A stretch of DNA of 64,000 nt. Source: Chrysoporthe austroafricana (Eukaryota > Ascomycota > Sordariomycetes > Diaporthales > Cryphonectriaceae). The notes beneath the pieces are model-generated. The model saw only the letters and a list, made by a program, of their open reading frames with translations. It did no database searches and was not told the DNA's origin. Position numbers and translations under genes: made by a program. Positions 1-62,635 of the stretch are shown here, piece by piece. Location of the stretch: positions 4,340,001 to 4,404,000 of the forward strand of contig JYIP02000001.1 in the NCBI GenBank assembly GCA_001051155.2, given 5' to 3'. The first letter of the stretch is position 1. Each line of letters begins with the position of its first letter.

Positions 1-1015
1 GGCGCCGGATTGAGGTTGGAGACTACCAGGATGACAAAGATGGACGGGATCCGGCTGCTTGATGTTGTCATAAGCCGAACGATTACTCTGATGAACGACC
101 TTTCGATTTAAGATACCCCATAGCGTATGAAAGGCTTTTTTTTGTCCACGGTGCGCAGCATAACAAAGCATGGCTTATGACGAAAACCCCCCTTCTTCAC
201 GATTCACGATGGGCAAAGCCGTCTGTGGCGTAAGGCGGTATTTATTCTGGCTTCCCTTACATATTCAATCCAGCGCCAGGCTTGGAAGTTCCAAGCCTAC
301 CCGTCAACCTCATGAACTCAGTATCCCTGGAGATTCGGACTACCTACCATTCATGTTTGCCATGTCGATCCCCGCTCCCCTTCTACGCCTTAACAGACTA
401 CTGTACGGCATTCAGCTGAGTCATTGGCGGGTCATCCATCGAAGAAACTCAAAGGACACCGCATGCTTGCATCAATCAGGCTTTCAGCCGGACAAGAAAC
501 ATGAGGGAGATAAAGTCGATAAAGGCAGCCCTGCCGCTCTTGCTTTTTATGTTACTGCGCCTCTCAGTACTGGTACAATACCATTCTGTTTGAGATACTT
601 GAGCATGAGATCATCATCACCACGGGGTGTTCCATGAAGATCAGGGCGTAAGCCCCATTGTTGCCGAACATAGCTATTGATGCTAATCTAGAGCTATTCT
701 GTCGATGCTGAAAGGTCGTGGGCATCCCGCACGGCACCAATCGTTTAAAAAGCCCGAGTTCACATTCTGGACCCCATCGTTCGATCATCATACTGTGTCC
801 ACCTCGTTCCTTCATAACTATATAGGACTTCAAACCTTCTACTAACTTTTGCAGGTGAGGCTGGGATTGCTCACTCACCCTCATCAGTTGGTTTCGATAT
901 CTTATTGTGGAAAATGCGCGTCTGAGAACCTAAATTTGAAACTCAAGTGAGCTCTCCTACCTATCACGTCGGACGGCCTCTTTTTTTGGCTTTTTCTCAG
1001 GAGAACGCCCGCAAA
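1..1015. other. Left-edge non-coding stretch
   Basis: Several short open frames occur on both strands but none has a convincing start context, domain or splice pattern. A poly-T tract lies near 137-144. I see no supported gene here. Confidence 0.5.
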
Positions 1016-1369
1016 ATGAGTTTTGAGACGGAACGCAGCCGTTCAATCGAGTCTACTACCACCTCTCTGAGTGGAGACTGTTACGATCCGCGGGACAGCA
1101 TACCTAAAAACAGCCCGCCCTCCGGGAAAGACAAAATCCCCTCCGTCCAGCCAACAAGCATGTTCATCCCGATGTCCCTCGGGACAGAGGAGGCCCACCT
1201 CTTCATTGTAGGCTACCCCAGCGCCGAGAACAAGGTGCGCCAGGCGCGTGATCAGGCCGCGAAGCAGCACGCGCACATGCAACGTCTCGTCCGCCACCGC
1301 GCGCCGCGCGCCAACCTCCCGCTGCGCCACGCAATCGAGGCAGCTCGGGGACGAGATCGCGCGGGCTGA
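1016..1369 (+). CDS. Small hypothetical protein, possibly frameshifted at its 3' end
   Basis: An open frame of 117 codons begins at an ATG with a good fungal context (GCAAAATGAG). The product starts with a Ser/Thr-rich stretch (MSFETERSRSIES) and moves into a basic, helix-prone segment (ENKVRQARDQAAKQHAHMQR) followed by HRAPRANLPLRHAIEA. I recognise no domain. Near 1339 the frame one base over continues with equally protein-like sequence (QLGDEIARAERLRKAG) to a stop at about 1420. This suggests a small indel or an overlooked splice has shifted the end of the gene. It could also be a chance open frame; no neighbour informs its function. Confidence 0.35.
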   Translation: MSFETERSRSIESTTTSLSGDCYDPRDSIPKNSPPSGKDKIPSVQPTSMFIPMSLGTEEAHLFIVGYPSAENKVRQARDQAAKQHAHMQRLVRHRAPRANLPLRHAIEAARGRDRAG

Positions 1370-1731
1370 GAGGCTGCGCAAGGCAGGGACCCTGAGTAGT
1401 TTCCGATGTAGGTTTGCATAGTCGCCTGCTACAGACACGCTGACTACTGCATCTTTTTTTTTTTTCTCCTTACTTTTCCATCACAACTGGCTTGAGCAGA
1501 TCTGTGCAAGTTTGCAGCCCATCCATCTATTATGAAATCTATAAATTTGCAATTTAAATCTACAATCGTCTTTATGAGCATCAATCACGACACGTATTGT
1601 CTTAATTAGAAGTTGTGATTGTTGCTTTTTGTATTGTAGCTAACCGTTCAAATTTGTCTTGTGCACGTGCGATCTTCGCTCGGGCTGGCTTCCTTCACTA
1701 CATAACAGTCATAAGATCAACTGGTTTTGTT
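1370..1731. other. Intergenic, no gene seen
   Basis: AT-rich spacer with a poly-T run near 1454-1465. It lies 3' of the UstYa-family gene. Nothing recognisable otherwise. Confidence 0.5.
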
Positions 1732-3100
1732 TCAAAGTTTGGTATGATGGTGTCTTTGATCTTGCGGCTGGACTAAGTCCGTAAAAGTTTGTATGACTTT
1801 GACTACTTGACTAATACATATTCCCCCCCCCCCCCTTTTTCGTTTTGAAAAAAGTGACAGTAGAGTGACCTGAGTCCCAATATCACACTTAATGAGCAGA
1901 TTCAATGCCTGGACTTGAGGTCTGCACCTATCTGAACCCCGACGCGGGAGCCGTTTGACGTTCCGCCCATGAAAACCTGCCCTGTTGATGACGAGTTTTA
2001 GTAAGCGGCAAAGCTCAGCGAGCATAACTGCATAAGTCTGCAAATCTGTCACTATGAAAGAATGATTTGCTGCCGTACCAAACTTTGGATGCACCATCTC
2101 GCCATCGACCCTGACATCAACCCAATGCTCACGAGACCAGCCCTCTATAAGAGACCAGTCAACGCAGGTATGCGGCGTCGACCAATTCGTCGTCGGCAAT
2201 GGTGACAAGTCCGTCCACCGCATGGTCAAGAGTGTGGTGTCTCCTTGACACATTATTGCTTGTTTCAGACGATCTAGACAGTGCGCCTTTTTTTTTTTCG
2301 CTGAGACTTAGATATATAGCCTTATCGGAGTTTGAAGTATGCTTGAGGGCGCAGGTGGAATTTCGGGCTCACTTACTGGTATGATACCGCTCTGCTTTGT
2401 GTTCGCTTTCCGTCATGCCTGGAAAGTAGTAGTCGAGGTATGAGTGGTGGTGAAGACGCATCTATAGTAAGCTCCAGCCGTCAGATATCTTTTACTAACT
2501 TTTCTTTCGGATCCCCAACGTAGCAAGCTTAAATGGTAAGAGGTCGAAGTACCTACCAGACAATGTAGATGGTGGTACACCGTGAACATTCCAAAATAAC
2601 CTCCACTGGTCAAGTGGACTGCTTCTGCCTCCCGACCTAGGCGAAATATCTCGTCCTCAGGAATCCTCACCTCAGCCCCTAGAGTGATTAGGTCAGTCCC
2701 CAAGTCATAGGGAGATGAAGTAGCCCAACAGACATTGGAGCAGCTCTTGCCAGTTTTTGTCAATCTCTTCGCCAGGTTCGCCGAAGAGCGGGTGTTTCGC
2801 CTCACCATGATCTCGGTAGTAGTATGGTTGATATCTGACAGCATTTTGTGCGATGTTCGGAATCAGTTGAGGGCCAGATGCACAATGAGGATCCGACAGC
2901 TTCTGCATGATGTTCCAGACGAGCAAAGTGTACGAAGCAAGACCACCCGCTAAAAACACTAGAGTCAGCGCACACTTGGTTAATGTGGGCGGCTTCCTCG
3001 GAATATTGATATCGACCTCATCTTCGCAAAGACTGCCGGAATCGAGGTCGTCCGTTGATGTGTGAGGAGACCATAACTTGGAATACTGTGTTTGATTCAT
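1732..3100 (-). CDS. UstYa-family (DUF3328) oxidase-like membrane protein
   Basis: Members of this family catalyse oxidative cyclisation of ribosomal peptides in the ustiloxin, phomopsin and asperipin pathways. My model has four exons: 3100-2734, 2678-2557, 2461-2377 and 2300-1732, all in phase. The earlier GTG at 3127 is not needed because an ATG lies at 3100. The protein shows a charged N-tail, one membrane segment at residues ~43-65 (CALTLVFLAGGLASYTLLVW), WQELLQWAEVRIPEDEIFRLG, then the first hallmark motif YHHLHCL at ~157-163, SYLDYYF, and the second hallmark region AHCLDRLKQAIMCQGD followed by HTCVDW. The second HxxHC motif lies beside an A-rich splice junction, so its first His is uncertain. 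The 3' 350 nt, with a 13-C run, extends the protein beyond the usual ~250 residues, so the true C-terminus may be earlier. It is divergent from the repeat-peptide gene at 4144. Confidence 0.85.
1823..1835. repeat. C13 homopolymer
   Basis: A run of 13 C lies inside the last open stretch of the UstYa-family gene, where it reads as glycines on the minus strand. It is a likely length-variable or error-prone site and one reason to doubt the extreme C-terminus of that model. Confidence 0.8.
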
Positions 3101-4143
3101 CGCGTCTTGCGTGCAAGTCGATGTCACGAAGTCGAGAGTGGTGAGTGGTATGAGACTAGGGTAAGAACGAGGTTTAATTTGCAGTCATTAGATGGATACA
3201 AGACCGAAAATTTCAAAAGTTGGGTCATCACCGGCTCACTCCAAGTTTCAAGGAGATGAAGGATTCCGATTGCCAGACCATCGTGAGTCATGGGATCCGA
3301 AAGACAGCATTTCAGCTTGACTCTGACGACTAAGTATATGTGTAGACATAATTCTTCATCGCCGACGGCTTGCAGGTTATCTTGGCCTTCCACACCGCCG
3401 AGGTCTGAGTGTCGGCAACTCGCAGCAAGCCAAACCCTTTTTCTTTGCTTCTAAAACATCGCACCCTATCAAATGAGGGGCCTTGATTGTTCGCGTGACT
3501 TTGATCACAATCGGCCCTTCTAGCCTCTTTGTTCTGCCGAATGAGAAGAGCACGAAGTTGCTACGAGGCTGTAGCCGGGCTTGGCAAATGTCAAACCGCA
3601 TACGAGACATGCGCGCGGTAAGAGCCTCATACGTGAGATCTGTTAGGTAAAATTTACATTGTGTATGTCTAGATGTTGGGAGCGAAGAGTTCACAACGCT
3701 CGAAGCTCGAAATGTTGGGCCTTGGCATGCATAAATACTTGCATTTCGGTCCTCGACTCAGCGTCAAGAAGAAGAGGCAACGTTTGACTCAGATGACAAT
3801 CCAATAGCACCAGGAGTGGCTGGAGTCTTTGATGAGCTCGTGATCTGAATGCATGATCATGCCACAGTCAGACATGTATGAATGAGCAGAAGCCAAGAAC
3901 ATTGGTACGAGGAAATTGTCTGTCCAAGTACTACCGAAGAAAATCCAGCCGACGACTTGCATAGCAAACTACCGGAATCTTTGGGCCTTCAGTATTATAA
4001 GTAGCTCTTCATCATTACCAAAGAAAAAATACCATAGATTCTCGTGGTGTCAATTATCAACGGTTTTGGTCACAAGTATCACGCCAATAGTCAAATCAAA
4101 TCCCACCCATCACAGTCAGATTTGTATTCTACCTATCGTCAAA
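3101..4143. promoter_or_regulatory. Shared divergent promoter of UstYa-family and repeat-peptide genes
   Basis: The 1.04-kb region lies between two outward-facing starts. A TATA-like TTATAAG lies at 3995-4001, about 145 bp before the peptide-gene ATG, and a CT/CAA-rich leader follows. Short frames on the minus strand (3124-3694) have no recognisable content. Co-regulation of the two genes is an inference from the head-to-head arrangement. Confidence 0.45.
3995..4001 (+). promoter_or_regulatory. TATA-like element of the repeat-peptide gene
   Basis: TTATAAG lies about 145 bp before the ATG at 4144, with no competing start in between that has a better context. Recognition is by pattern only. 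Confidence 0.35.
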
Positions 4144-4462
4144 ATGCAGCTGCGTCTCATCCTGCTTGCGTCACTCCCCTTTCTCGGAACCTTGATGGCA
4201 GCGCCCACCAGTATGTATATTCTGGCATAGCGCGAGTATTCTTATCCGTGTGATGTCACTAACTTTGTAATCCCAAGATGCTGCTTTGGTCTCCCGGGGG
4301 TATTCCGCTACTTACAGGACTCCGGTGGGCCGTGCTGAGGTCCTGAAGAAGCGCGGTCCCAATGTGGCCTCCTATGAGACCGGTCTGCCTCTTGAGAGCA
4401 GTGAGAAGCGTGAAACTGCTTCTTACGAGACGCCTGTTGGGCCGCCAGATCGTTCGTTGTAG
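4144..4462 (+). CDS. Secreted kexin-processed repeat peptide, candidate RiPP precursor
   Basis: Two exons, 4144-4210 and 4278-4462, are separated by a 67-nt intron with GTATGT donor, CTAAC branch point (4259-4263) and AAG acceptor. They give 83 residues. Residues 1-20 form a clear signal peptide (MQLRLILLASLPFLGTLMAA). Three related segments follow: ATYRTPVG (33-40), ASYETGLP (53-60) and ASYETPVG (70-77). They are separated by KKR at 46-48 and EKR at 65-67, the Lys-Arg sites cut by Golgi kexin. Repeats are diverged at synonymous sites, as expected for an old coding duplication. Established fungal dikaritin precursors have this same plan: signal peptide, repeated Tyr-containing cores, Lys-Arg spacers, and a neighbouring UstYa gene. 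The family is inferred from architecture; I recognise no exact known core. An alternative is a non-cyclised kexin-processed repeat protein, for instance a signalling peptide. Confidence 0.8.
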
Positions 4463-5024
4463 AGGAGAACTACGACTGTGCATACGGTCATTGTTAATAG
4501 CTTACTCGTCGACGGGCGTCGTGTTGTCACGCGAGTGAGCTTATGCGCACATCAGCTAGCCAGAAGAGCTGGAGATTATGGGGTCCATGTCTATCCTTCA
4601 TCGTATAACCTATAACCACATTCATTTACTGTCGCTCCTTATGCTATACACCTGCGAGCGTGCCTTTCCGATTTGGTGTCTATGTCCCGGAACATTTACT
4701 CGCAAGGGTCATGTTAGAGCCGCCGCATTTGACAAGGCTTTGATGAGAATGATCATGGTCTCTTCCCATACATCCCACATCGCAGATTGTGTTTACTACT
4801 GCGACCCTATCGTGGGCGAGTGCTGTAATGTCATGTGGATGCTAGATTCGGGATATCGTAGTCGGAGCATAATATAAGAGGAATTTCAGGCCAATCCTGG
4901 CGTCAGGTATCACTTACTGAGAACATAATCCGAGATTCACTCTTGAGAAGTACCCTGGAGGTATGTTGAAAAATTCCAATCGTCTTCATTATACTGGGCT
5001 AGGAGAAATTGAGCTCTTAAGACC
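4463..5024. other. Convergent intergenic region
   Basis: This lies between the 3' end of the repeat-peptide gene and the 3' end of the MFS gene. No supported gene; it presumably holds both terminators. Confidence 0.5.
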
Positions 5025-6570
5025 TCAATATATGTACTTGAAGCCCTTAACACCCTCAATTACTCCCTTCTCATCCCTTGCACGTCTGTTTGCCTTCCAG
5101 AATACCCATCCGCACACCACCACCACAGCGATGATCAAGATGTGGCTTCCAATGCTGATCCATATCGCCGTGGGGTACCAGGGTGCCTCAGACGGCTTGA
5201 AAATGTAGGACCCTGCGATCCCTCCAAGCGCATTGCACCCACTCACAGCGGCAGCAACAGTGGCACGCTTCCATTGTCCTGTGACGTTATTCATCTGCCA
5301 AGCGTTCATCGCGGCCCAGTTTGAGACGTAGGCTCCGGTCGCAAGCATGACGCCAACGTAACGCACGGCTACATTGCTTGGGAAACCAAGCATACACATG
5401 CCTACAATTAAACACACGGCGTTGAAAACAATCATTGGTCCACGTATTGCGAGTCGGTCTGCGATAAAGGAGGTGATGATGACAGGAATGACAGAATAGT
5501 AGTACGGCGGGGCGTAGAGCAGGATCGAGTCGGCCGAGGTGAAACCCATGCCCTCCAAGATGGTAGGAATAAAATATGAAAGGGCGGTGGAGACGATATT
5601 CTGCAGGAAGAAAAGCAGGCTGAAAGCATAGAGCTTGACGTCCAGGAAGGGTCTCAATATAGCTGTCCAGTTGAAAGGCTCAGGAGATCCGGCATCTTTA
5701 CGGTCTTCGTCGATGGTAGCGAGAACCTGGTCTGTCTCGTCTTTCGTCAGGAACCAGAGCGTCTTGGTGGCATTCTCGGGAAAGTCGGGTATCCAGAGGA
5801 AGGTCAGCAACCCCAAAAACATGGTGATGGCGCCTTGGACTATGAACATCCATTGCCATCCGCGTAGACCGTGGGATTGGTCTAGCATGTCCAGGCCATA
5901 GTTCACAATACTGCCGGTTGCAACCACTATAACCTGTCCGGACTGCAGATAGGCGAACCGTAGCTGTTGTTCTTTGCGAGTGTACCTAGAGTCTGTCAGC
6001 AAGTCGTTTCTGTTAGTGGCGGAGGACAACTTACCACGCCGATATGAGGTATGCCAGGCCAGGGTATATACCAGACATAGCCAAGCCCATGAGAAATCTC
6101 AGGGCGATCATCTGTCTCCAATCCGCGACATATCCCATACACAATGTTATAAGCCCGAATAAAATCGTGGTGACTGTGAAGAAAATAGGAGGGCCGACAA
6201 GGCGCATGATGATGGTAGCTGGTAATTTGAATACCACCTGTGCCAGAACCACGATCCAAATAGCTGTCGAGTACCGATTTCCGGTCAGACCAAGCTCCGT
6301 TGGCATGGACGTCGCAGATGCTGAAGACATGATACCGGAGTCGATCAGATCCAGCGCGCATAGTAGACCTGCGATAGTACAAAGGCGCAGATCGATTTTG
6401 CGTATGATGCGCCTATCCAGCGCTGTAATTGACCTGCCAACGAGCTCATTTTCTCCTATGCCGGCGTTGTCCCCAGAATAGGTTGATGCTGAGGAGTCTG
6501 GATCGTAGCCTTCGCCAATCTCCCTCGCAGCTGCTACTGCGAGGGCTTCATTGTCTATCTTCACATCCAT
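5025..6570 (-). CDS. MFS transporter, Dal5-like anion:cation symporter family
   Basis: Two exons, 6570-6035 and 5985-5025, with a 49-nt intron (GTAAGT, CTAAC, TAG), give 498 residues, the usual length for this family. After a hydrophilic N-tail the first helix starts with LDRRIIRKIDLRLCTIAGLLCALDLID, a typical Dal5/vitamin-carboxylate permease opening. The 12-helix pattern follows, with the conserved RFLMGLAMSGIYPGLAYLISAWYTRKEQ signature and GWQWMFIVQGAITMFLGLLTFLWIPDFPE. Members move small organic anions (allantoate, nicotinate, pantothenate and similar) across the plasma membrane. It sits tail-to-tail with the repeat-peptide gene and may belong to that locus, but substrate and link are inference. 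Confidence 0.88.
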
Positions 6571-9500
6571 GGTGGAATGTTGCGGGTCTGGGCTCGAATC
6601 AAGAGTGCATCCAGTAAAGTCGATTGGTTTGAAAATGAAGACAAAGATGTATAGAGTTCGATACTTAAACCATCTATCCTTGTTGTCTTGAGGATTCAGC
6701 GTGATTCAGCGGGAAGTAAACTTTTGTAAGCACAGCGTGAATGGGGTCAGGTTAATAATGAATGCTTGGTCAGAACGAAAATTTAGGCGATTTCGCCATT
6801 CTGCGACTAGGTCGTATTCCATATGGGGCACAAGTGTCGGCGTTATTGCCGGCATGTTGTGACCTCCGAGACACTTCGACCGCCTTCCACCGGCGACGTC
6901 GTTTGTGTAGAATGACCAGCGCACGCGTCCCGAAGATAGCCATGCTGCTAGACACGATCATATAAGAGCGGAATATCGCCAAGAGGATTTTGAGTAAGGT
7001 CAACAAAGTCTCGGCAGATTTCGGTTCTCGCCTTTCATTTTTTTTTTGCTACTTAGGCGGAGGAGACAAAAAAGGCCTTATCTTGTCTCCGCCTGCCAAC
7101 GATCGTATCTAATCACGGTTCCGCTCCTATTCTTGCATCAGTTGCAACCGCCCATGCATTTGTTTACCCCCAATTAGACACCCCGCCATATTAGCTCCTC
7201 CTCCTCTTCATCAGCTGCTCAATTTGTTTTCTAGCACCCAGCGCTCACCAAGTGTGAATAGACTGCATAACACGGGCTAGATGCTTCCTCTCAAACTATC
7301 ACTAAGAAGATGCTCCGGCAAAGATCATGTTGGGCTGTGATATGTATCAAAACACGGCTGCACAGGAGCATCTGCATTAGGCAGTGCTGGTGACAGACCT
7401 CGCCTACTGGCCCGTCTGCCCAATCAGGAGCTCAACTAGTCTATACTCCCGGACACGCAGACTTCTTGTAATATGATGGTCAAAGATCAAGTCTTGGTGC
7501 AATGCTGCCAGGACACGCTATTAACGTAGCACTTCCATCATCCTCGAGCACATGTCACGAATATGTCATTAAGGTTTGAGACCGCTTCCTGATCACGCTC
7601 AGCAGCCGCTTATACCTCGTTGGCTTAGGACATGGATTGGAATTTGGGTATTTCTCATGTTTCACAATGTGCTTAGCTACAGCCGCCTCCTAGCTCGACT
7701 TGTTCATAAGGTCTTCATTCCAACTCGTGTAACCTGAAGGAGGCATGAAGAGGGATAATTGTTTTTCAGGTCGGGTTGAGGAAGAAAACGTCGTAGAAAT
7801 GTCCGAGAGTAGCCTGTCGAGATACTGGTGCTGTATAAGGCTTTTGAGCAGATGGCTTAAAGAAACAGATTTACTTGTGACTTATGAGTATGAGGTCTGT
7901 ATAGTCGAGACCGCTCATTCTGAGACTCAACGAGGCGGTAAAAACAGTGCAACGCACTGCCCGCGGCAAACTTCTTTCTCGGTGGCTGTCAACTTATCAT
8001 CTACACAGCCACACTGGCCAAGAACAATAAAGCTGCCAAGGCCGAAGACCAAGAGTCCGCGAGTGCGTCCAGCTGTAGAGAGGTGGACCCGTCATTCTTC
8101 TGGCCGATCCTGATTTAGCTGCTAGCCCCTACAACCGAAGGCCAGGGCGGCTTTAAGGATCATGATCACGGCATGCTCTCCATTCGTGAGACTTAACACA
8201 GCTACTCCAAGTCCAGAGAAGACAGAACAAACTTAAAAACAGGCTGGAGAGGCCCGAGGCGCGAGCATGTCGCAACATGGGAGGAGCGAATCAACGACTT
8301 CATCACGCGCGACAGCCTTCTAATCAAGCAGTGACCGATCGTCCGTTCTCACTGCTGTGGTTATAGTGCATCATTACAGGGCGTTTGAAGAACCTTGAAT
8401 CTATGTTGCGCTAACTATTTAGAGACTCTAGGCGCCCGGATCTGAAGATAGAGGACGGTGGGTTTTCTTAAAGCATTATTAGTTTATGACGAAGTTGGGG
8501 GTCGCAACGTTTAGAGGAGGAATATGTCTAAAAATATTCGTGGCACATTGAATTTCAGGCGCCTGGCCCGGCTCAAGCACCTTAAAAACGTCTGCACCGG
8601 TGCCTGTATATTGATCCAAAGTCTAAACTACGTGTCCTGTGCGAAACGGTGCGTGGATCCTGCCAATGCAGCACCTTGAGATGTGGATAAGTGTTTCTCC
8701 AGCGCGGGTATGATGACCACAGAGCCCCCTTCTAGGTGCTAAAGCAATACTCCACTGCCACGTCGTTAGAACCACCCGTCACAGCAGCCATTCTTACACA
8801 TCTCCGAGATGAAGGCCTTCTCCGCGCTCCTAGCAGCTCCCGCATAGATTCTGCTCGAGTTTCGGGCTCCGAGCTAGGAACACTGGCGAGGCATTGGGGG
8901 GAGCAAATGTCTCCTCAACATATGACGTAGAGAGCTTGACGAAGATTACCTTCTCAAAAATGACGGGCTGGCTCAGCTTTGCAGACTCTCTTAGGGTTTT
9001 CGCCACTCTATTTTAGCAAGCTTCGACTGCTGGATGGCGCGAAGCCCATCTTAGTTACCTTCAACCTACATCAAGTAATCGTTCTACAAGGTCTAAAAGT
9101 CTTTCACCAGCAGCCCTGACTGCGATCGTCCGGCTGATCGATTCTGTCTTAAAACGCTTGTGCTAGACTCACACGTCGTATTGTATGCGTTTGCCCTCGC
9201 TACGACCAACTTCCCCCTCTGTAAGTGTTGTATTGTATTGTGTTTGATTATCTACTGACCACCAGGTATCCGATTTTGTACAAGGGCCAGCGCGTCGCAT
9301 CTAGTCTACTGTTTGCTCCTTATGATTATGTGCGGCGATACACAAGTAGCATTATATGCTACGTTGTACAGGGTGGTGTAATTACAAGTATGCATTCTGC
9401 TGACTCTAAACATGCTGAGGACGCGCCATAAAAGGAACAGTTTCATGGACTGGGATTCTGACGAGTGGAGAGGTGACAAGGTGCAAAGAACCGGAACTCT

Positions 9501-9705
9501 GAAATTGGGAGAAGCCAGGCTAGTATTTTCTAATCAAGTGCAAGGTAATGCAATTACTGTTCCTTTAAACTGGCTTTGCCCCTCATCCTCAGATTTTGTG
9601 CAATATATGATCCAAATTGCGCCGGTAACCAGAGGAGAGAGATTTACTCCACGTATGCATCAATAATTCTATGTCTATGCCCTATCTCTATGAACATGGT
9701 ATCTC
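6571..9705. other. Gene-poor region with decayed coding traces
   Basis: The 3.1-kb gap holds no intact gene that I can support. Protein-like but interrupted sequence is visible around 7951-8335 (listed separately). A short possible signal-peptide remnant (MKAFSALLAAPA followed by a stop) lies at 8809-8847. Confidence 0.5.
7951..8335 (+). pseudogene. Decayed coding sequence, one frame with two internal stops
   Basis: A single frame reads protein-like sequence for about 128 codons but is broken by TAG at 8116 and TAA near 8194. It starts NALPAANFFLGG followed by a hydrophobic segment and a charged tail (AKNNKAAKAEDQE), and later contains EHVATWEERINDFITRD before a TGA. Both internal stops could come from CAG or CAA by C-to-T change, as in repeat-induced point mutation or simple decay. 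The ANFFLG stretch faintly recalls mitochondrial pyruvate carrier proteins, but the resemblance is too short to name it. It may also be chance open sequence. Confidence 0.25.
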
Positions 9706-11579
9706 TCAAGAAATCGCACCCTCCGACTCTCCACCTGAATCTCCTTCATTTTCCTTGTGGTAGGCTCTGCCCTTGATGTCTGTTCGGAATTGCACTTCTT
9801 CATCCTGCAGCTCCGCCTTCAACGTTTCATTCGCCCTCCAGATTGGCTTAATACTGAATAAGCGATCCATCTTCTCCAGCGGAATACCACTGGTCTCGGG
9901 AATGAGGAAAAACGCGTAGAAGAAGGCGAAGAAGGACAGCGCCGCGAAGAACATATACACGCCATAGCCCATTGCAGCAAACATCTGCTCAGTGAATCGA
10001 GAGACGAGGAAGTTGAAGAGCCAGTTACTAGCTGTGGTGGCCGCCTGGGCTACGGAGCGGAAGTTAGGGTCAAAGAATTCCTGGTCGCGGTATAATTAGC
10101 ACAAGTATGACTGAGCACTGGAGCAACGTGGACTTACGGAGTTGAGAACCCAAGGAGTGCCGTTCCATGTAGGTGTGTAAATGGCCGTCCAGAGATAGAA
10201 GAAGAAGATTGCAGCAATGCCGCCTCCATTCAGGTGGCCACTTGGGTGTTCTGCTGGCTCGACTACGCAAATGTATGCGCCAATGACCCACATGCAGAGG
10301 GATCCTGTGATGGCTCCGATGAGCAACAGCTTCCGTCTCCCAAGCTGGTCGACAAGAAACAGCAGCCACAAGATGGTCATGACGGCTTTGACCACACCGA
10401 AAATACCAGTCATCAAGCTGACAGTGTTGTCTTGGACGCCAAGACTCTGCACTTTTGGTTAGGACACTGCTGACTCCAACTCTCGCCCAGATCTCGAAGC
10501 TTTGTAATTGAAAATAACCGAAGATAGGGACTCACGGAAAAGATGGTAGGCGAATAATAGTTAATCGCATTGATTCCTGAGCCGTTTTGCCAGAAAAACA
10601 GCATACAACCCAGGAACAAGCGCCACTGCATGTTCGGTCGCCCGGCTAGCGCCTTGAATGGCTGCCAGAAACCGATACCGACATCTGCCTTTTGAGACTC
10701 GCGCGCACTGTCAATGGCTGCTACCTCTTCCGTGATGTATATGTCTGATGCATCAAGTTGGCGGATCCAGCAAAGACTTTCCATGGCTTGCCTGCGGCGG
10801 TCCTTGAAAAACAGCCAGCGTGGTGACTCCCGAATCCATAGCGAGCCGATGAACAGCAACCCCGAGGGAATCAGCTGGATGGCAAATGGAATGATCCATT
10901 GTTCATGGCTCGGCTGCATGTGTGCTTCGACTCCATACTAGACGAGTTTGTCAGCAACGCAAGCCCTCTGGAGGTCCCACAGAATCCCGCACACAGGGCA
11001 CGGGCTAGAATGAAAAATCAAAATCCACCTGTCATGACTCACATTGATCCAGAAGCCCAGCACACCACCAATCTGCCAGCCCAACTCGTACAGGCCTACG
11101 AGACGGCCTCGAATCGCTGGCGGCGACAACTCGGAAAGATAGATCGGAATGATGTTCGAGGCGACTCCGGTGCCAAGCCCGGACAACACACGGCCCGCGT
11201 ATAGGATCCCGAGCCCGCGGTTGTGGTTGGCGCCGCATTGTAGTCCAGCTCCCAATGCAAATGTCGCCGATGCGATTGAAAGACACACCTTCCGTCCGAA
11301 CCAATGACTGAGGCCGTACGTGAAAATGGCACCAAAAAAGGCCCCCGCGATGAAGAGGGAGACGATGTTCTCGGCGATCAAGTTCCTGTCCGACTTGGTC
11401 ATGTTATTGAGGCCGAACTCGTCCTCAAACGACGTAAGCGTAACGGTTGTACCAATGAAGGCACTCGTGTAACCTATCATGTTAGAACCACATGATGCAA
11501 TGATGGCGAGCACGTAGACCCGCCAGTTGTAGACCGAAGGGGGGGTTGGCCGATCCTCGACGAGTGTTAGGAGACCCAT
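9706..11579 (-). CDS. MFS sugar/quinate permease
   Basis: Four in-phase exons (11579-11043, 10937-10536, 10446-10138, 10080-9706) give 540 residues, matching fungal quinate permeases (~530). The N-terminus (VEDRPTPPSVYNWRVYVLA) and GYTSAFIGTTVTLTSF are characteristic of the QutD/Qa-y branch. Sugar-porter signatures follow: GRVLSGLGTGVASNIIPIYLSELSPPAIRGRLVG, RESPRWL, NGSGINAINYYSPTIF, DQLGRRKLLLIG and the C-terminal PETSGIPLEKMDRLF. It is a plasma-membrane proton symporter for quinate or a related polyol or sugar acid. No other quinate-cluster gene is adjacent, so the substrate is inferred from sequence alone. Confidence 0.88.
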
Positions 11580-56771: not shown

Positions 56772-59576
56772 ATGCCGCGAAAGAAGGAATCGGCCGTCGA
56801 CTTGTGCGACAAGGCCGTGGTGCTGGGCAACAGCATCGCCATCCGCATGCTTGAATATCTGAGCACCGTGAAGCATCAGGTCCAGGGGATTCGGGAGCTG
56901 GCCGCCGTGTTTTTGGACGTGGGCCGTATCCTCTGGGTCATCGAGTCCGGGCTCAAGGCTTCCAAGGCCGATGCCAAGCACATCCTGCCCGGGGACCTGA
57001 TGATAGAACTCGAGAAGCGCTTCCGACAGACCCATGACGAGTTTATCGTGCTGAACCAGCTGGTGACGCGCTTCCTCGAGAACGACAAGAAGTCCGGCTT
57101 CGCGCGGTTTTCCAAGGGGTTCAAGATGATGTTCGCAGACTCGGATGTGAACAAGGTACGCGCCACCCTGGAGAAGACCCGCGAGAACCTGCGCATGAGC
57201 TCGCTCGTGTTCAAGTGGTCCATCGGCGACGAGGACGTCGACTCGACTATTGGGATCGGCTACACGGGGCTCGCGGCCGCGCTGGACCGGATGAACGGTG
57301 CTATCAAGCCGAAGAGCAGAGATGCGCCGGCGTACTCGCACCCCTCCGAGGAGCCACGACAGACGACACCCCAGGCACCGCTTCCTGAGGTCCCGCGCCC
57401 ATCCGCGGTCATGGACCAGGGCGACTTCCCACTCCCGCCGTCGTTGCCGCCATTGTCGCATCTCGAGCGCTCCCCTGTGCAGAGCATGGACTTCCTGGGA
57501 TCCACCCGCTTCACCGGCACGAGCGGGGCCCTGGATGACTTCAACCCCATGCAGCAAGGCCCAGGCCGTGCGGCCTCCACCATCAGGAGCGCGCGGTCCT
57601 CTAAGGGACCCAGCCAGTCTATGGGCATGGAGGTCACAGCTTCTGAGATGTCGAGCCCCCTCAGTGGCAGCCACAGCACCGTGCAGCGGGATAGTGCTTC
57701 CACACATACGACTGCGACCGACACACTGCTCGAGGATCTGCTCAGCGAGACGGACATCACCGAGCATCATGACGACCTAGTTGAAGGGCCGGTCACGCGG
57801 CTCAAGGCCGACCCTAGCACCGCCCCGAGGTGGACCCCGCGGTTCAACACCGGCAATGGTAACCCACAGTACAAGGCCGCGCTCGTCCAGGCCGTGCAGA
57901 AGAAGGGCCACGGCGCGATCGAACAGCTGCTGGACCGCGGCGTGCAGCCGGACTCTGTGAGCGAGATGAACCTGCTCCGGGAGGCTGTCCTGCTCCGCGA
58001 CCTGGAGACGGTGCGGCTGCTCCTCCTCTTCGGCGCGGATCCCAACGCCATCGACAAGGTTGGCTGCTCGCCTCTGTTCTCTGCCACCGAGCTTGGCTTC
58101 CTCGACGCGGCGAAGCTGCTGATCAAGTACGGCGCCGACCCGAACCTGTCTGCCGGCCCCAACGCCGACACGCCGCTCGCGCTGGCCGTGCTCGAGAACA
58201 AGTTCGACCTGGTGCAGCTGTTCCTGATGTATGGCGGCAACACGAATCAGATCATGGCTAACGGGAACACAACGCTCATCCGATCCATCGACCGGAACAC
58301 GCCGAAGCGGGTCATCGAGCTCATCCTGAACTACGGCGGGGACCCCAACATCAAGAACGGAGAGGGCACGTCGCCCATGTTCCAGTGCATCAGCGTCCAG
58401 CGGCTCGACATCGCGCACCTTCTCCTCGACCGGGGAGCGGACCCCAACCTCCCCGGGCCGAAGCACCTGCTGTGGCCCAGCGCCTACCACCCGCCGTTCC
58501 TCAGGCTGCTCCTGTCGCGGGGCGCAGACCACAAGATGGCCCCCGGCATCATGGAGCTCGCGACGTCGGTCAACAACATCGAGTCGGTGCGCATCCTCCT
58601 GAACGCGGGTGTGGACCCCAACGCGAAGAAGGACGGCGTCTACACGCCCCTGTGCTCCGCGATCCGCGACAACCGCGGCGATATCGTCACGCTCCTCCTC
58701 GCCAACGGCGCGGACCCGAACGTGCCCGCGTCCGAGTACCCCTGCTTCAAGTGCGTGACGCACCACCGCTCGCACTTCCTGCCGCAGCTGATCGAAGCGG
58801 GCGGCGACCCGACCGAGCCCAAGGGCATCGTCGAGAAGGCCGTCCAGCACAACAACCAGGACGCCCTGATCTTCCTGCTCGACCACGGCGTCGGCGTCAA
58901 CGTCAAGTCGAAGGAGGGGTGGACGCCACTGACGACGGCGATCCGGGACAACCGCGCCGAGATGGTCGACCTGCTCCTCGCGCGGGGCGCGGACCCAGCC
59001 ATCCGTGGCCAGGACTGGCCCATCAACCTGGCCGTCAAGCGGCCGAACATCCTGAAGAAGCTGCTGCCGTCCATCTCCAACCCCAAGAACTTCAAGGGCG
59101 TGGTGGAGATGGCGGTGTGCGCGAACCAGCTCGAGAGCATTCGGCTGCTGCTCTCGGCGGGCTTCAACGTGGAGGACAAGAACGGCGGCGTGTTCTCGCC
59201 GCTGACGAGCGCCATCCGCGAGGGCAACAAGGAGATCACGCGCTACCTCATCGACGAGGCCGGTGCCGACGTCAACGCGCCCGGCGAGCATCTGCCCATC
59301 ATCAAGGCGATCCGCCGGATGCGGGGCAACGACACCGAGATCCTCGAGCTGCTGCTCGAGCGCGGCGCGGACATCAACCTGATGTACAGGGGCTGGAACG
59401 CGGTGCTACAGGCGGTCGAGAACGGCGACGCGAACGTGCTCAGGCTCCTCGTTGAGAAGGGCAACGGCGTCGACCTGGAGAAGACGGACGAGAACGGGCG
59501 GACGGTGCTAGATGTTGTGAACGGGCACGGATGGGACGAGGCGGTACAGATCATCAACAAGAGCAACCGGCGGTAA
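56772..59576 (+). CDS. Ankyrin-repeat protein with fungal N-terminal helical domain
   Basis: An intronless frame of 934 codons starts at an ATG in good context (CCATCATGCC). Residues 1-165 form an alpha-helical domain (DKAVVLGNSIAIRMLEYLSTVKHQVQGIRELAAVFLDVGRILWVIESGL) resembling N-terminal domains of fungal STAND/NLR-like and ankyrin proteins. Residues ~170-345 are Pro/Ser-rich and disordered. Residues ~365-930 contain about 15 ankyrin repeats with typical wording (LLLFGADPNAIDKVGCSPLFSATELG; LLIKYGADPNL; LLLANGADPNV; LLLERGADINL). The solenoid suggests a scaffold; the N-terminal domain suggests a signalling or heterokaryon/immunity-like role, which is inference. GC-rich third positions create long antisense open frames that are not genes. 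Confidence 0.88.
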   Translation: MPRKKESAVDLCDKAVVLGNSIAIRMLEYLSTVKHQVQGIRELAAVFLDVGRILWVIESGLKASKADAKHILPGDLMIELEKRFRQTHDEFIVLNQLVTRFLENDKKSGFARFSKGFKMMFADSDVNKVRATLEKTRENLRMSSLVFKWSIGDEDVDSTIGIGYTGLAAALDRMNGAIKPKSRDAPAYSHPSEEPRQTTPQAPLPEVPRPSAVMDQGDFPLPPSLPPLSHLERSPVQSMDFLGSTRFTGTSGALDDFNPMQQGPGRAASTIRSARSSKGPSQSMGMEVTASEMSSPLSGSHSTVQRDSASTHTTATDTLLEDLLSETDITEHHDDLVEGPVTRLKADPSTAPRWTPRFNTGNGNPQYKAALVQAVQKKGHGAIEQLLDRGVQPDSVSEMNLLREAVLLRDLETVRLLLLFGADPNAIDKVGCSPLFSATELGFLDAAKLLIKYGADPNLSAGPNADTPLALAVLENKFDLVQLFLMYGGNTNQIMANGNTTLIRSIDRNTPKRVIELILNYGGDPNIKNGEGTSPMFQCISVQRLDIAHLLLDRGADPNLPGPKHLLWPSAYHPPFLRLLLSRGADHKMAPGIMELATSVNNIESVRILLNAGVDPNAKKDGVYTPLCSAIRDNRGDIVTLLLANGADPNVPASEYPCFKCVTHHRSHFLPQLIEAGGDPTEPKGIVEKAVQHNNQDALIFLLDHGVGVNVKSKEGWTPLTTAIRDNRAEMVDLLLARGADPAIRGQDWPINLAVKRPNILKKLLPSISNPKNFKGVVEMAVCANQLESIRLLLSAGFNVEDKNGGVFSPLTSAIREGNKEITRYLIDEAGADVNAPGEHLPIIKAIRRMRGNDTEILELLLERGADINLMYRGWNAVLQAVENGDANVLRLLVEKGNGVDLEKTDENGRTVLDVVNGHGWDEAVQIINKSNRR

Positions 59577-60862
59577 GGTGTTCCCGTCTGTATGCCTAGG
59601 TGTATCTCGGACCATTCACTCGACCCCAGAATAATTCCCTTCTTTCCGGTGTGCATCTGTGAGTGTTCGCTGGTTCCATTACCTTGCGCGTGACCTCAGA
59701 ACTCATCCACTCCACCCGGCCCCCCGCCGCCTCCAAACCAAACCTCCAGTGTGCTGACTTTGCCCGCCTTGCAGAATGAGTGTAATTTCTTCTTTGTCCT
59801 GGGGGGTAATACTCGGGGAAAACGGCGGAGCGGATCCATCGACGGGGAGGTCTTCGATGGAGACGATTGGGGAGTGACCTGACGAGTTTTGATGAAGCTG
59901 CGACACCATATCCAACGCCTGGAACCTTTTTTTTTCTCCTTTGTCGTCATGTCAGGAGGCACTCTGTGGCGCATTCTGTGATTCAATACCTTCACACATT
60001 TTTCTTGCTATTGCCGTACGGGTTACGTCGTGTCAAGGAATCGAAAATTGAGCCTCTATTTTGTCATTGCGACCCGCCCGTTCAGGCTGTAGGCTGTAGT
60101 TGTGGTGGTGTCTCTACCGCAAACCGTAGTAAGATGAGCCTCGTCCGATGTGCCATAGGGTGGTTCTCTGCCCCGGTCACTCTCATCTTCCCTCCCACCC
60201 GGCCTCTCATCCTGTCTCTCGCTCCAGAGATGCTACCCCCCCTCCCCCTTTTTAGGGCTGTATCACGATCGAGCCTAAATCCGGCTCTCGAGATGACAAG
60301 TCCGCTTAGGGGCCAAAAGGCAGACACGCTACGACGAATCGGGGAACCAGCCAGCTCGATGCATCAGCCATTCACGCCATTGTACATCGGTGAGCCGGGG
60401 GCAGAATCCTACGCTGATCCCCCTCCAATCACCTCGTCGTACCCTGCCTGCTCGCATGCTGCGCCCCTGCTCGCAGCACAGAGCCCTGGGAGCCCTGGGG
60501 CCCAGGCACGCCAGGGCCACGGGCATGCATCAGCCTCCCCCTGCCTGGGGCGGAGGGCGACAGATCTAATCATCATCATCACCACCACCACCACCACCAC
60601 CAAGACCTCGCCTCTCAGGTCTCCCAACAGCCCCTCGACCGTACAGGAGGGCTCGCCAGCCAGGAGGACTACCGAGAAGAGACGAGCACCCCCATCTCGT
60701 CGTGTGAGAGCTATCTTCTGTCCCAGCCGGCGCCTCGACCAGCCGGGCTGCGCCCTCGTTCCTTTCCGGCTCGTGCGGGCGGCTCATTCGTCAGCCCCAC
60801 TTTTGACACTCACACGCAGCCTCCGCCCTTCCCGGTCGACCAGCTTCTCCGAGGCGTCTTCT
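59577..60862. other. Intergenic/leader region of the Clr5 gene
   Basis: The plus-strand frame of the Clr5 gene is open here from 59867, but begins with TTG and reads as low complexity (poly-Thr from CACCACC repeats at 60580-60601). I treat it as leader. It may contain true upstream codons or a 5' intron. Confidence 0.4.
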
Positions 60863-62635
60863 ATGGGGAGGGCAGAGACAGCCATAACCAGCACGGCTCA
60901 GACCATGCCATCACTACCCGAGGGGGCCGTAGGCAGGAGGGGCGGTGCGGGAGCGCAGGGGCCGGCAGGAGAGGCCCCCGGGAGCGACGACACCACCAGG
61001 CCCGCGGCGGCGCTCGTCCTGCGCGGCAGACCCGCCAAGGCCCGCCCCAGCCGGACCAGGTGGGCCGAGTACAAGCCGATGATGCAGCGGCTGTACATGG
61101 CCGAGGACAGGACGCTCAAGGAGGTCATGGAGATCATGCGGGCCGACTTCGGATTCGTCGCCACGGAGCGCTCCTTCAAGCGGCGCATCGCCGGTTGGGG
61201 ATGGCGCAAGAACATCCAGATCAAGCCCGGTGCCGACGACCGCGCCGTCCACGAGGCCTTCAAGAGCCGCTACGTCGACGCCGTCGACACCTCGGGCCAG
61301 ACCCAGGTGCGCCTCGCCAATGGCCAGCTCGTCGACGTCGACCGGCTCGCCGAGCACGTCAGGAGGAAACGCGCGCGGGTCTTGCATGATAAAAACAACA
61401 ATACCAGCACCAGCAGTACCAGCTGTATCGGCAGCAGCGGCAGCAGCAGCGGCAGCAGCACTAGTGACTCCCCCTCCCCCTCGTCCTCCATCATCCTCAC
61501 CACCACTGCCCCGCCGCCGCCGTCGCAGCAGCAGCAGCTGGTAGTGGTGCCAAACATCCAGCAAGCCTTATTACGACAGCAGCAGCAGCAAAAGCACGAC
61601 TATGTATTCTGGGGCATCAAGGCCCCCGCGGCGCTGCGTGTTTACGAGGTCGTCTTCGTGCACAGCCGCACGTATACGTTTGGGCGGCACGAAGACGAGC
61701 TGACCAGCGTGCCCGTGGCGGCACGTGTGCTAGCGCGCGACAAGCGCCACGCGGTGCGCTGGGGCCGCTTCACGGCCGGGGTCAAGGAGAGCCTAGAGCG
61801 CGGCGACATGGACGCGGCGCTGACGCACATGCGGTGGGCGCCGCGGGAGCTCGAGGCCATGATCCGGCACCAACCCTCGACGATACTGTGCTCCCTGTAC
61901 ATGTTCATCCTACAGGCGGGCTGCCACATACCGGAGGATGAGACCGAGCGGCGACAGTTCTGGGCCGTCATGAAGGCCCTGCTCAGGTACGGGGAGTGTG
62001 TCACGCAGAACCTGGGGATGACTGCCGAGCACCCGCTGCAGCAGGTCCTGCGGAGCCTCACGACCGTGCCGGATAACGAGCTGGGCGAGGTGGCGTTCCG
62101 CGCGTGGGCGGTGACGACCCAGGCTTGGGGGTCGCTGATCTCGCTGGACGGCGTCTCGGAGCCCGCGCTCCCTCCCGACAGCGTCCGCCACTGGCTGGAT
62201 CACGGCGACAAGGGCAACATGCTGGATCTCATGCGCGAGGTTGTTAATGAGAGCGTGAGAAGGTGTGACGCTCAGTACGGCCAGGGTGACGAGAGGAGCC
62301 TTCGGACCCTGCAGTCAAAGGCTGAGATGCTGATTGTTATGGTGACTGACGAGGGGCAAGATTGTTACCAGAACCCGGCGATTGCGAGTATCTATCAGGA
62401 AATTTTGGATCGAGGAGCCCAGGGCGCCGAGAGAAATGAGGCTCTAAGTTTTCTCGAGAAGGCGCGTGAGGTGAATAAAAGGGCGTTGGTGTCTTGGGCA
62501 GAGCAACCGCCTTTCCAACTGCCACATTTCGTCAGTGGGTTGAGCCCACCAGGTAATCTTTCTAATTGCTCTGAATTTTCTTCCGCCTCCAGCCCCTACG
62601 ACAGTCCAACGCCGGACGCACCCCAGTTTGTATAA
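60863..62635 (+). CDS. Clr5-domain protein
   Basis: From the ATG at 60863 the frame gives 590 residues without introns. A complete Clr5 domain lies at residues ~66-118: RWAEYKPMMQRLYMAEDRTLKEVMEIMRADFGFVATERSFKRRIAGWGWRKN. This is a short helical domain found at the start of many fungal proteins, first named from a cellulase-regulation locus. A basic segment (RRKRARVL), a Ser/Gly- and Gln-rich spacer with CAG/CAA tracts, and a helical C-terminal half (tetratricopeptide-like in feel: MKALLRYGECV, TLQSKAEMLIVMV) follow. The true start may lie further upstream (in-frame ATGs near 60135, 60231 and 60291). Function is unknown; a nuclear or DNA-associated role is inferred from the domain. Confidence 0.82.
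   Translation: MGRAETAITSTAQTMPSLPEGAVGRRGGAGAQGPAGEAPGSDDTTRPAAALVLRGRPAKARPSRTRWAEYKPMMQRLYMAEDRTLKEVMEIMRADFGFVATERSFKRRIAGWGWRKNIQIKPGADDRAVHEAFKSRYVDAVDTSGQTQVRLANGQLVDVDRLAEHVRRKRARVLHDKNNNTSTSSTSCIGSSGSSSGSSTSDSPSPSSSIILTTTAPPPPSQQQQLVVVPNIQQALLRQQQQQKHDYVFWGIKAPAALRVYEVVFVHSRTYTFGRHEDELTSVPVAARVLARDKRHAVRWGRFTAGVKESLERGDMDAALTHMRWAPRELEAMIRHQPSTILCSLYMFILQAGCHIPEDETERRQFWAVMKALLRYGECVTQNLGMTAEHPLQQVLRSLTTVPDNELGEVAFRAWAVTTQAWGSLISLDGVSEPALPPDSVRHWLDHGDKGNMLDLMREVVNESVRRCDAQYGQGDERSLRTLQSKAEMLIVMVTDEGQDCYQNPAIASIYQEILDRGAQGAERNEALSFLEKAREVNKRALVSWAEQPPFQLPHFVSGLSPPGNLSNCSEFSSASSPYDSPTPDAPQFV

What the first reader, a model, noticed from the sequence alone, without database searches (positions are those of the whole stretch)
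4144..4462. Candidate new RiPP precursor: secreted peptide with three Tyr-containing repeats and kexin sites
After splicing a textbook 67-nt intron, the gene encodes 83 residues: a signal peptide, then A-T-Y-R-T-P-V-G, A-S-Y-E-T-G-L-P and A-S-Y-E-T-P-V-G separated by KKR and EKR. Seen directly: the repeats, the dibasic sites and the signal peptide. Known: dikaritin precursors (UstA, PhomA, AprA, GigA-type) have repeated Tyr-bearing cores between kexin sites. Inferred: this is such a precursor with an unreported core. Few repeats and imperfect copies would make automated callers miss it.
Basis: partly seen in the sequence, partly recalled or inferred. Interest (0 to 1): 0.92.

Follow-up and report, generated by a model that had tools for sequence, protein, structure and literature searches.

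The report
Fungal peptide precursor beside cyclase gene
A small fungal gene encodes a secreted protein that is probably cut into three similar tyrosine-containing peptides and ring-closed by an enzyme encoded next door; it is a new, unusually short member of a known kind of fungal peptide pathway.

Summary
At 4144-4462 (+), removal of a 67-nt intron (4211-4277) gives 83 residues: a signal-peptide-like start and three imperfect repeats (ATYRTPVG, ASYETGLP, ASYETPVG) separated by KKR and EKR. Shuffles of the 61-residue mature part reached the repeat score in 0 of 20,000 trials. The same strict scan found kexin-repeat precursors at 4 of 19 other UstYa loci read and none in 74 kb of control DNA. 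A dikaritin-like, Kex2-processed precursor modified by UstYa is likeliest (0.75). Limits: no precursor homologue found; no tyrosinase match in the window; the second HxxHC motif of UstYa is interrupted by lysines in each of 4 in-frame splices, so decay is possible; no RNA or mass data. The core was not found in the held papers. New member of a known kind.

The parts
4144..4210 (+). precursor exon 1: signal-peptide-like start MQLRLILLASLPFLGTLMAAPT
   Evidence: 12-residue mean hydropathy up to 2.08; SignalP not available
4211..4277 (+). intron, 67 nt, GTATGT...CTAAC...AAG
   Evidence: not confirmed by RNA
4278..4462 (+). precursor exon 2 with the three repeats and stop codon
4307..4330 (+). repeat 1, ATYRTPVG
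4346..4354 (+). KKR, predicted Kex2 site
   Evidence: cleavage inferred
4367..4390 (+). repeat 2, ASYETGLP
4403..4411 (+). EKR, predicted Kex2 site
   Evidence: cleavage inferred
4418..4441 (+). repeat 3, ASYETPVG
1902..3100 (-). UstYa (PF11807) gene, 291 aa, modelled exons 3100-2734, 2678-2557, 2461-2377, 2300-2079, 1981-1902
   Evidence: (149.7 bits for residues 1-265)
5025..6570 (-). MFS transporter (MFS_1), tail to tail with the precursor; membership in the cluster unproven

Best explanation
This is a small dikaritin-like (UstYa-linked, Kex2-processed repeat) RiPP locus. The precursor enters the secretory pathway, Kex2 cuts after KKR and EKR, and trimming gives about GPNVASYETGLPLESSE and ETASYETPVGPPDRSL plus an N-terminal piece that holds the first repeat. 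The UstYa oxidase encoded next door cross-links the tyrosine of each A-[ST]-Y-[ER]-T core to a nearby side chain, giving a Tyr-linked ring with loss of 2 H, and the product is secreted. Shown here: open frames with splice signals, repeats, dibasic sites, adjacent UstYa. Inferred: splicing in vivo, Kex2 cutting, ring closure, its position (Tyr and the residue two on, by analogy with YxI cores), and secretion.
For: Repeat structure beyond residue shuffles, 0 of 20,000. UstYa gene divergent, 1.04 kb between start codons; about 0.2% of the genome lies within 1.05 kb of one of 40 UstYa gene-like clusters (matches at E up to 0.01). The spliced UstYa model matches profile positions 10-220 of 220 and runs parallel to the Akanthomyces protein into its C-terminal tail once intron 4 is removed. 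The same strict scan found precursors at 4 of 19 other UstYa loci read; one (L032) also shows a signal-peptide-like exon with a donor site upstream of its repeat frame. Each of the three units keeps Y and, two residues on, T. Published pattern: DUF3328 counts are highest at the gene next to KEP genes, and 65.6% of repeated sequences in DUF3328-linked KEPs contain Y against 38.2% in the others (PMC7329392, passages). Asperipin-2a needs only a precursor, one UstY homologue, a transporter and a reductase (PMC6514808, passages).
Against: No relative of the precursor at E up to 1 (6 candidates) or, with a doubled query, at E up to 10 (1566 candidates), so conservation could not be tested. Only three imperfect, unevenly spaced copies. 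The second HxxHC of UstYa is interrupted by KKKK in each of the 4 in-frame splices among 36 GT-AG combinations tried. No tyrosinase match in the window; the nearest on the contig is about 0.88 Mb away. In ustiloxins and phomopsins the residue two after Y is Ile; here it is Thr, whose beta-carbon already bears an oxygen. 15 of the 19 other UstYa loci read gave no hit in the strict scan. No transcript or product data.
Confidence: 0.75

Rival explanations
1. A decaying or relic RiPP locus: once a repeat-rich precursor with a working UstYa, now reduced to three diverged copies beside an enzyme whose second HxxHC motif is interrupted.
For: Only three imperfect copies, against 14 and 8 at two other loci of this genome. 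An 11-A run puts lysines between H and HC of the second motif (HTTKKKKAHC or HTISAKKKKAHC, where the Akanthomyces relative has HTIHC).
Against: Both genes keep open frames with usable splice sites; UstYa keeps its first HHLHC motif and its C-terminal half. Repeat units differ largely by synonymous codons at kept positions. Another precursor in this genome has only three units (L026).
Confidence: 0.12
2. A linear, unmodified Kex2-processed secreted peptide (pheromone, hormone or effector-like) that lies beside UstYa by coincidence.
For: 78% of published KEPs have no DUF3328 gene within 15 genes (from the 22% of PMC7329392, abstract and passages). No tyrosinase or methyltransferase domain was seen in window 1-10,000 or L018.
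Against: Lying this close to a UstYa match is about a 0.2% coincidence. Of 216 putative fungal pheromones all but three lack a DUF3328 neighbour (PMC7329392, passages). The protein has no Cys and no Trp, unlike the alpha-pheromone pattern (recalled).
Confidence: 0.08
3. Chance open frame: no gene, repeats accidental.
For: Raw-frame scans give equal or higher repeat scores in unrelated frames; no homologue.
Against: 0 of 20,000 shuffles; 0 strict hits in 630 kb of Markov sequence and 74 kb of control DNA; signal-peptide-like exon plus splice signals in register; adjacent UstYa.
Confidence: 0.05

Closest known systems
Asperipin-2a cluster (aprA, aprY, aprT, aprR; Aspergillus flavus)
   Same: Repeat precursor with a Tyr core and a single UstY homologue, a transporter gene close by, and no tyrosinase among its four genes (PMC6514808 passages).
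   Different: Core FYYTGY against A[ST]Y[ER]T..; no reductase domain seen in window 1-10,000 or L018 (an epimerase-family gene lies 17 kb away); the transporter here is not shown to be related to AprT.
Ustiloxin and phomopsin (UstA, PhomA) dikaritins
   Same: Signal-peptide-like leader, KR-separated Tyr cores, UstYa-type protein.
   Different: 16 and 8 units with YxI cores, two and five UstY genes, and a tyrosinase (PMC7329392 and PMC6514808 passages); here three uneven units, YxT, one UstYa, no tyrosinase match in the window.
Epichloecyclin precursor GigA
   Same: Few repeats (four) with KR sites and oxidative cyclisation on Tyr (PMC6514808 passages).
   Different: No sequence comparison was made here.
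Other UstYa-linked precursors in the same genome (L031, L036, L026, L032)
   Same: Repeats between KR sites, 0.4 to 2.1 kb from a UstYa match; L032 also has a signal-peptide-like exon upstream.
   Different: Unrelated units (HTYGVDED, Y-rich, CSYNWI, DIDIADGF); L032 units lack a conserved Tyr.
UstYa-domain protein of Akanthomyces lecanii (LLEC1_01330)
   Same: Closest relative found of the adjacent enzyme, 53% identity over 80%, parallel into the C-terminal tail.
   Different: Second motif HTIHC against an interrupted one here; its neighbourhood could not be read.

Membership tests
Kex2-processed repeat protein (KEP; criteria of PMC7329392 section 13) | signal peptide | tested here: inconclusive
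   N-terminal hydrophobic run after MQLR; SignalP not available
Kex2-processed repeat protein (KEP; criteria of PMC7329392 section 13) | at least 3 tandem repeats of 8 or more residues between dibasic sites | tested here: inconclusive
   three 8-residue units separated by KKR and EKR, but the first is not preceded by a dibasic site and units are imperfect; the published 40-residue-seed algorithm was not run
Dikaritin (UstYa-linked RiPP) | UstY/DUF3328 gene in the cluster | tested here: met
   PF11807, 149.7 bits against a cut-off of 25, divergent neighbour
Dikaritin (UstYa-linked RiPP) | two HxxHC motifs in UstY | tested here: inconclusive
   first HHLHC present; second interrupted by lysines in each of 4 in-frame splices among 36 combinations
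Dikaritin (UstYa-linked RiPP) | Tyr in every core | tested here: met
   A[ST]Y in 3 of 3 repeats
Dikaritin (UstYa-linked RiPP) | tyrosinase in the cluster (ustiloxin and phomopsin, not among the asperipin genes) | tested here: not met
   no PF00264 match in the window; none in domain scans of 20 kb; not a general requirement
Dikaritin (UstYa-linked RiPP) | YxI core, as in ustiloxin and phomopsin | tested here: not met
   YxT in 3 of 3; asperipin-2a (FYYTGY) also departs from YxI
Dikaritin (UstYa-linked RiPP) | cross-linked cyclic product | not testable with these tools
   needs LC-MS/MS
Fungal alpha-pheromone precursor | Cys/Trp-containing repeat (recalled) | tested here: not met
   no Cys or Trp in the 83 residues; no Pfam match at E up to 1

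The most novel reading that the evidence does not exclude
A minimal RiPP locus of one precursor and one UstYa in which three non-identical A-[ST]-Y-[ER]-T cores, ending PVG, GLP and PVG, give two or three different Tyr-linked rings, with the cross-link partner at or near Thr instead of Ile, made by an enzyme with an expanded second motif.
Probability: 0.3. Interest if true: 0.55.

Novelty: new member of a known kind. Interest (0 to 1): 0.4.

Why it matters
It shows that a short, three-copy, imperfect precursor beside a lone UstYa gene can be recognised by combining three weak signals: a signal-peptide-like exon, KR-separated Tyr units, and an adjacent UstYa gene. At 15 of the 19 other UstYa loci read here no precursor was found by the strict scan, so substrates are open for many of these enzymes; this pair is small enough to test directly, and its Y-x-T cores would extend the known range of UstYa chemistry if a ring is found.

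Tried and rejected
Precursor relatives: none at E up to 1, none at E up to 10 with a doubled query, no second copy in the own genome at E up to 10, no Pfam match at E up to 1 and no NCBIfam match at E up to 0.01. Loose repeat scan (output partly cut): too noisy to be evidence; replaced by the stricter scan, whose rules were set. RNA folding of the unspliced gene: nothing unusual (z -1.19). Solved structures for the UstYa profile: one match at E 0.27, chance level. Literature: strings from the three units (4 strings) and from the other precursors' units (5 strings): no paper. A larger cluster was considered and rejected: Pfam scans found no domain in window 1-1900, only UFD1-like, actin-family, ABC-transporter and related domains in the 10 kb before the window (L018), and between 6.6 and 10 kb only the end of a sugar-transporter gene that continues to 11.58 kb. 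Whether published automated callers would miss this gene was not tested. The organism was not identified.

Full report
The window is G000:C1:4340001-4404000 of an unnamed fungal genome of 48.15 Mb in 22 contigs (fungal by its introns and by the relatives of its proteins). The finding at 4144-4462 was re-derived from the sequence: exon 1 4144-4210, intron 4211-4277 (GTATGT, CTAAC, AAG), exon 2 4278-4462, giving 83 residues and a stop. The product starts MQLRLILLASLPFLGTLMAAPT, a signal-peptide-like stretch, and carries ATYRTPVG (residues 33-40), ASYETGLP (53-60) and ASYETPVG (70-77), separated by KKR and EKR. The first unit has no dibasic site before it.

Is it more than chance? Shuffling the 61-residue mature part gave 0 of 20,000 shuffles with three units scoring 19 of 24 identities or more (best 18; that test did not require a dibasic site between units). 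Codon differences between units are synonymous in 3, 4 and 4 codons and replacing in 5, 2 and 3 for pairs 1-2, 1-3 and 2-3. Against this, a loose scan of raw frames of 40 or more residues showed 8 frames of the window with three or more similar 8-mers separated by KR or RR (identity 5 of 8 or more), of which the candidate is one and not the best. A stricter rule, set after that scan (KR between copies, gaps of at most 40 residues, a Y, F, W or H in the unit), left the candidate alone in window 1-10,000, nothing in 74 kb of control DNA (window 10,001-64,000, L017, L018), and nothing in 630 kb of first-order Markov sequence.

The surroundings carry the strongest evidence, and the finding did not mention it. 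A genome-wide search with PF11807 (UstYa) gave 54 matches at E up to 0.01, which merge into 40 gene-like clusters at 30 loci (a few matches are below the family's cut-off). One is the immediate divergent neighbour of the precursor. Its model has five exons (3100-2734, 2678-2557, 2461-2377, 2300-2079, 1981-1902) and 291 residues; residues 1-265 score 149.7 bits against PF11807 (cut-off 25; profile positions 10-220 of 220). The start codons have 1043 bases between them. About 0.2% of the genome lies within 1.05 kb of a UstYa cluster and 0.4% within 2 kb, so the neighbourhood is unlikely to be accidental.

The UstYa protein has two relatives at E up to 0.001 among 411 candidates: an Akanthomyces lecanii protein of 284 residues (53% identity over 80%) and a Boeremia exigua fragment of 159 residues (41% over 62%). 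The alignment shows a kept first motif (HHLHC against HNLHC) and a kept C-terminal half; once the fourth intron (2078-1982) is removed, our protein continues FGQVFMGGTSNGSRVGVQ where the relative has FGQVFVNGKHNGSRIGVS. One feature counts against a working enzyme. Of 36 GT-AG combinations tried for the third intron, 4 read on in frame, and each of them puts KKKK, from an 11-A run, between the H and the HC of the second motif (HTTKKKKAHC or HTISAKKKKAHC with the GTAAGT donor; two more with a distant donor that lose the exon before it), where the relative has HTIHC. It may be tolerated, or the locus may be decaying; cDNA would tell. Two HxxHC motifs are described as the suspected UstY active site in PMC12048977 (passages).

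Other neighbours: an MFS transporter (5025-6570, minus; MFS_1; matches to NCBIfam transporter models far below their cut-offs), then the end of a sugar-transporter gene at about 9.86 kb that continues to 11.58 kb. On the far side of UstYa no Pfam domain was seen in window 1-1900, and L018 holds UFD1-like, actin-family, ABC-transporter and related domains. No tyrosinase match lies in the window; the nearest on this contig is about 0.88 Mb away. The set resembles asperipin-2a (precursor, one UstY homologue, transporter, reductase; PMC6514808, passages) more than ustiloxin, but no reductase was seen in the 20 kb scanned in all frames and the transporter's role is unproven. From 10 to 64 kb of the window only ten long frames were scanned.

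A comparison inside the genome supports the reading. The strict scan found precursors at 4 of these 19 loci and none at 15: L031 (14 HTYGVDED-type units), L036 (8 Y-rich units), L026 (3 CSYNWI-type units) and L032 (4 DIDIADGF-type units). They lie 0.4 to 2.1 kb from the nearest UstYa match, against 1.2 kb in the window. The scan reads unspliced frames with three or more copies, so it can miss others. L032 shows upstream, in another frame, a start MRFSILSAFLSLSTLAVTNPIHPG followed by GTAAGT, that is, a signal-peptide-like exon and donor before the repeat frame, as in the window (the acceptor was not modelled). In the units of the window, L026 and L031 that were counted the residue before Tyr is Ser or Thr; in L036 this holds for 24 of 60 Tyr, and L032 has no conserved Tyr, so this is only a hint.

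Mechanism. Inferred from named precedents: Kex2 cutting in the Golgi, then UstYa-type oxidative closure on Tyr. In ustiloxins and phomopsins the ring joins Tyr to the Ile two residues on (PMC7329392, passages). In all three units here the pair at those places is Tyr and Thr, so the partner or chemistry may differ.

Rivals are given in their field: relic locus (0.12), linear peptide beside UstYa by coincidence (0.08), chance frame (0.05).

Novelty. Searches for the units in held papers found nothing (4 strings, 0 papers); only papers under open licences are held, and supplements were not searched. Precursor relatives were not found in 5.8 billion proteins at the sensitivity available, which fits the field: 2560 of 7878 published KEPs had no homologue (PMC7329392, abstract). 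So the core looks unreported, while the kind is well known. I saw of PMC7329392 the abstract, passages and sections 9 and 13; of PMC12048977 the abstract, section 22 and passages; of PMC6514808 passages; other papers only as search listings.

Noticed in passing
L031 (G000:C16:38000-47999), 3138 down to about 2221, minus strand: A classical kexin-repeat precursor with 14 HTYGVDEDEIAKR-type units, signal-peptide-like start in the same frame, about 2 kb from a UstYa match; a tyrosinase match (C16:43776-44324) lies at the same locus.
   Followed up: partly
L036 (G000:C16:770500-780499), about 7460-8488, plus strand: A very Tyr-rich kexin-repeat precursor (YASYGTYP, YATYDKYP and similar, 8 units in the strict scan) about 2 kb from a UstYa match.
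   Followed up: partly
L026 (G000:C16:255000-264999), about 7830-8210, plus strand: Precursor with three KRCSYNWIKR-type units alternating with GIEAC segments, at a locus with three UstYa matches.
   Followed up: partly
L032 (G000:C18:170000-179999), 4559 down to about 4338, minus strand: Precursor with four DIDIADGF-KR-type units, no conserved Tyr, between two UstYa matches, with a signal-peptide-like exon upstream; a Tyr-free core beside UstYa may mean another chemistry.
   Followed up: partly
window 2288-2298: An 11-A run (minus strand) at an intron-exon border of UstYa, giving lysines inside the second HxxHC motif in each in-frame splice found.
   Followed up: partly
window 56772-59576 (+) and 59867-62635 (+): Large ankyrin-repeat frame (934 aa) next to a frame with a Clr5 domain.
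   Followed up: no
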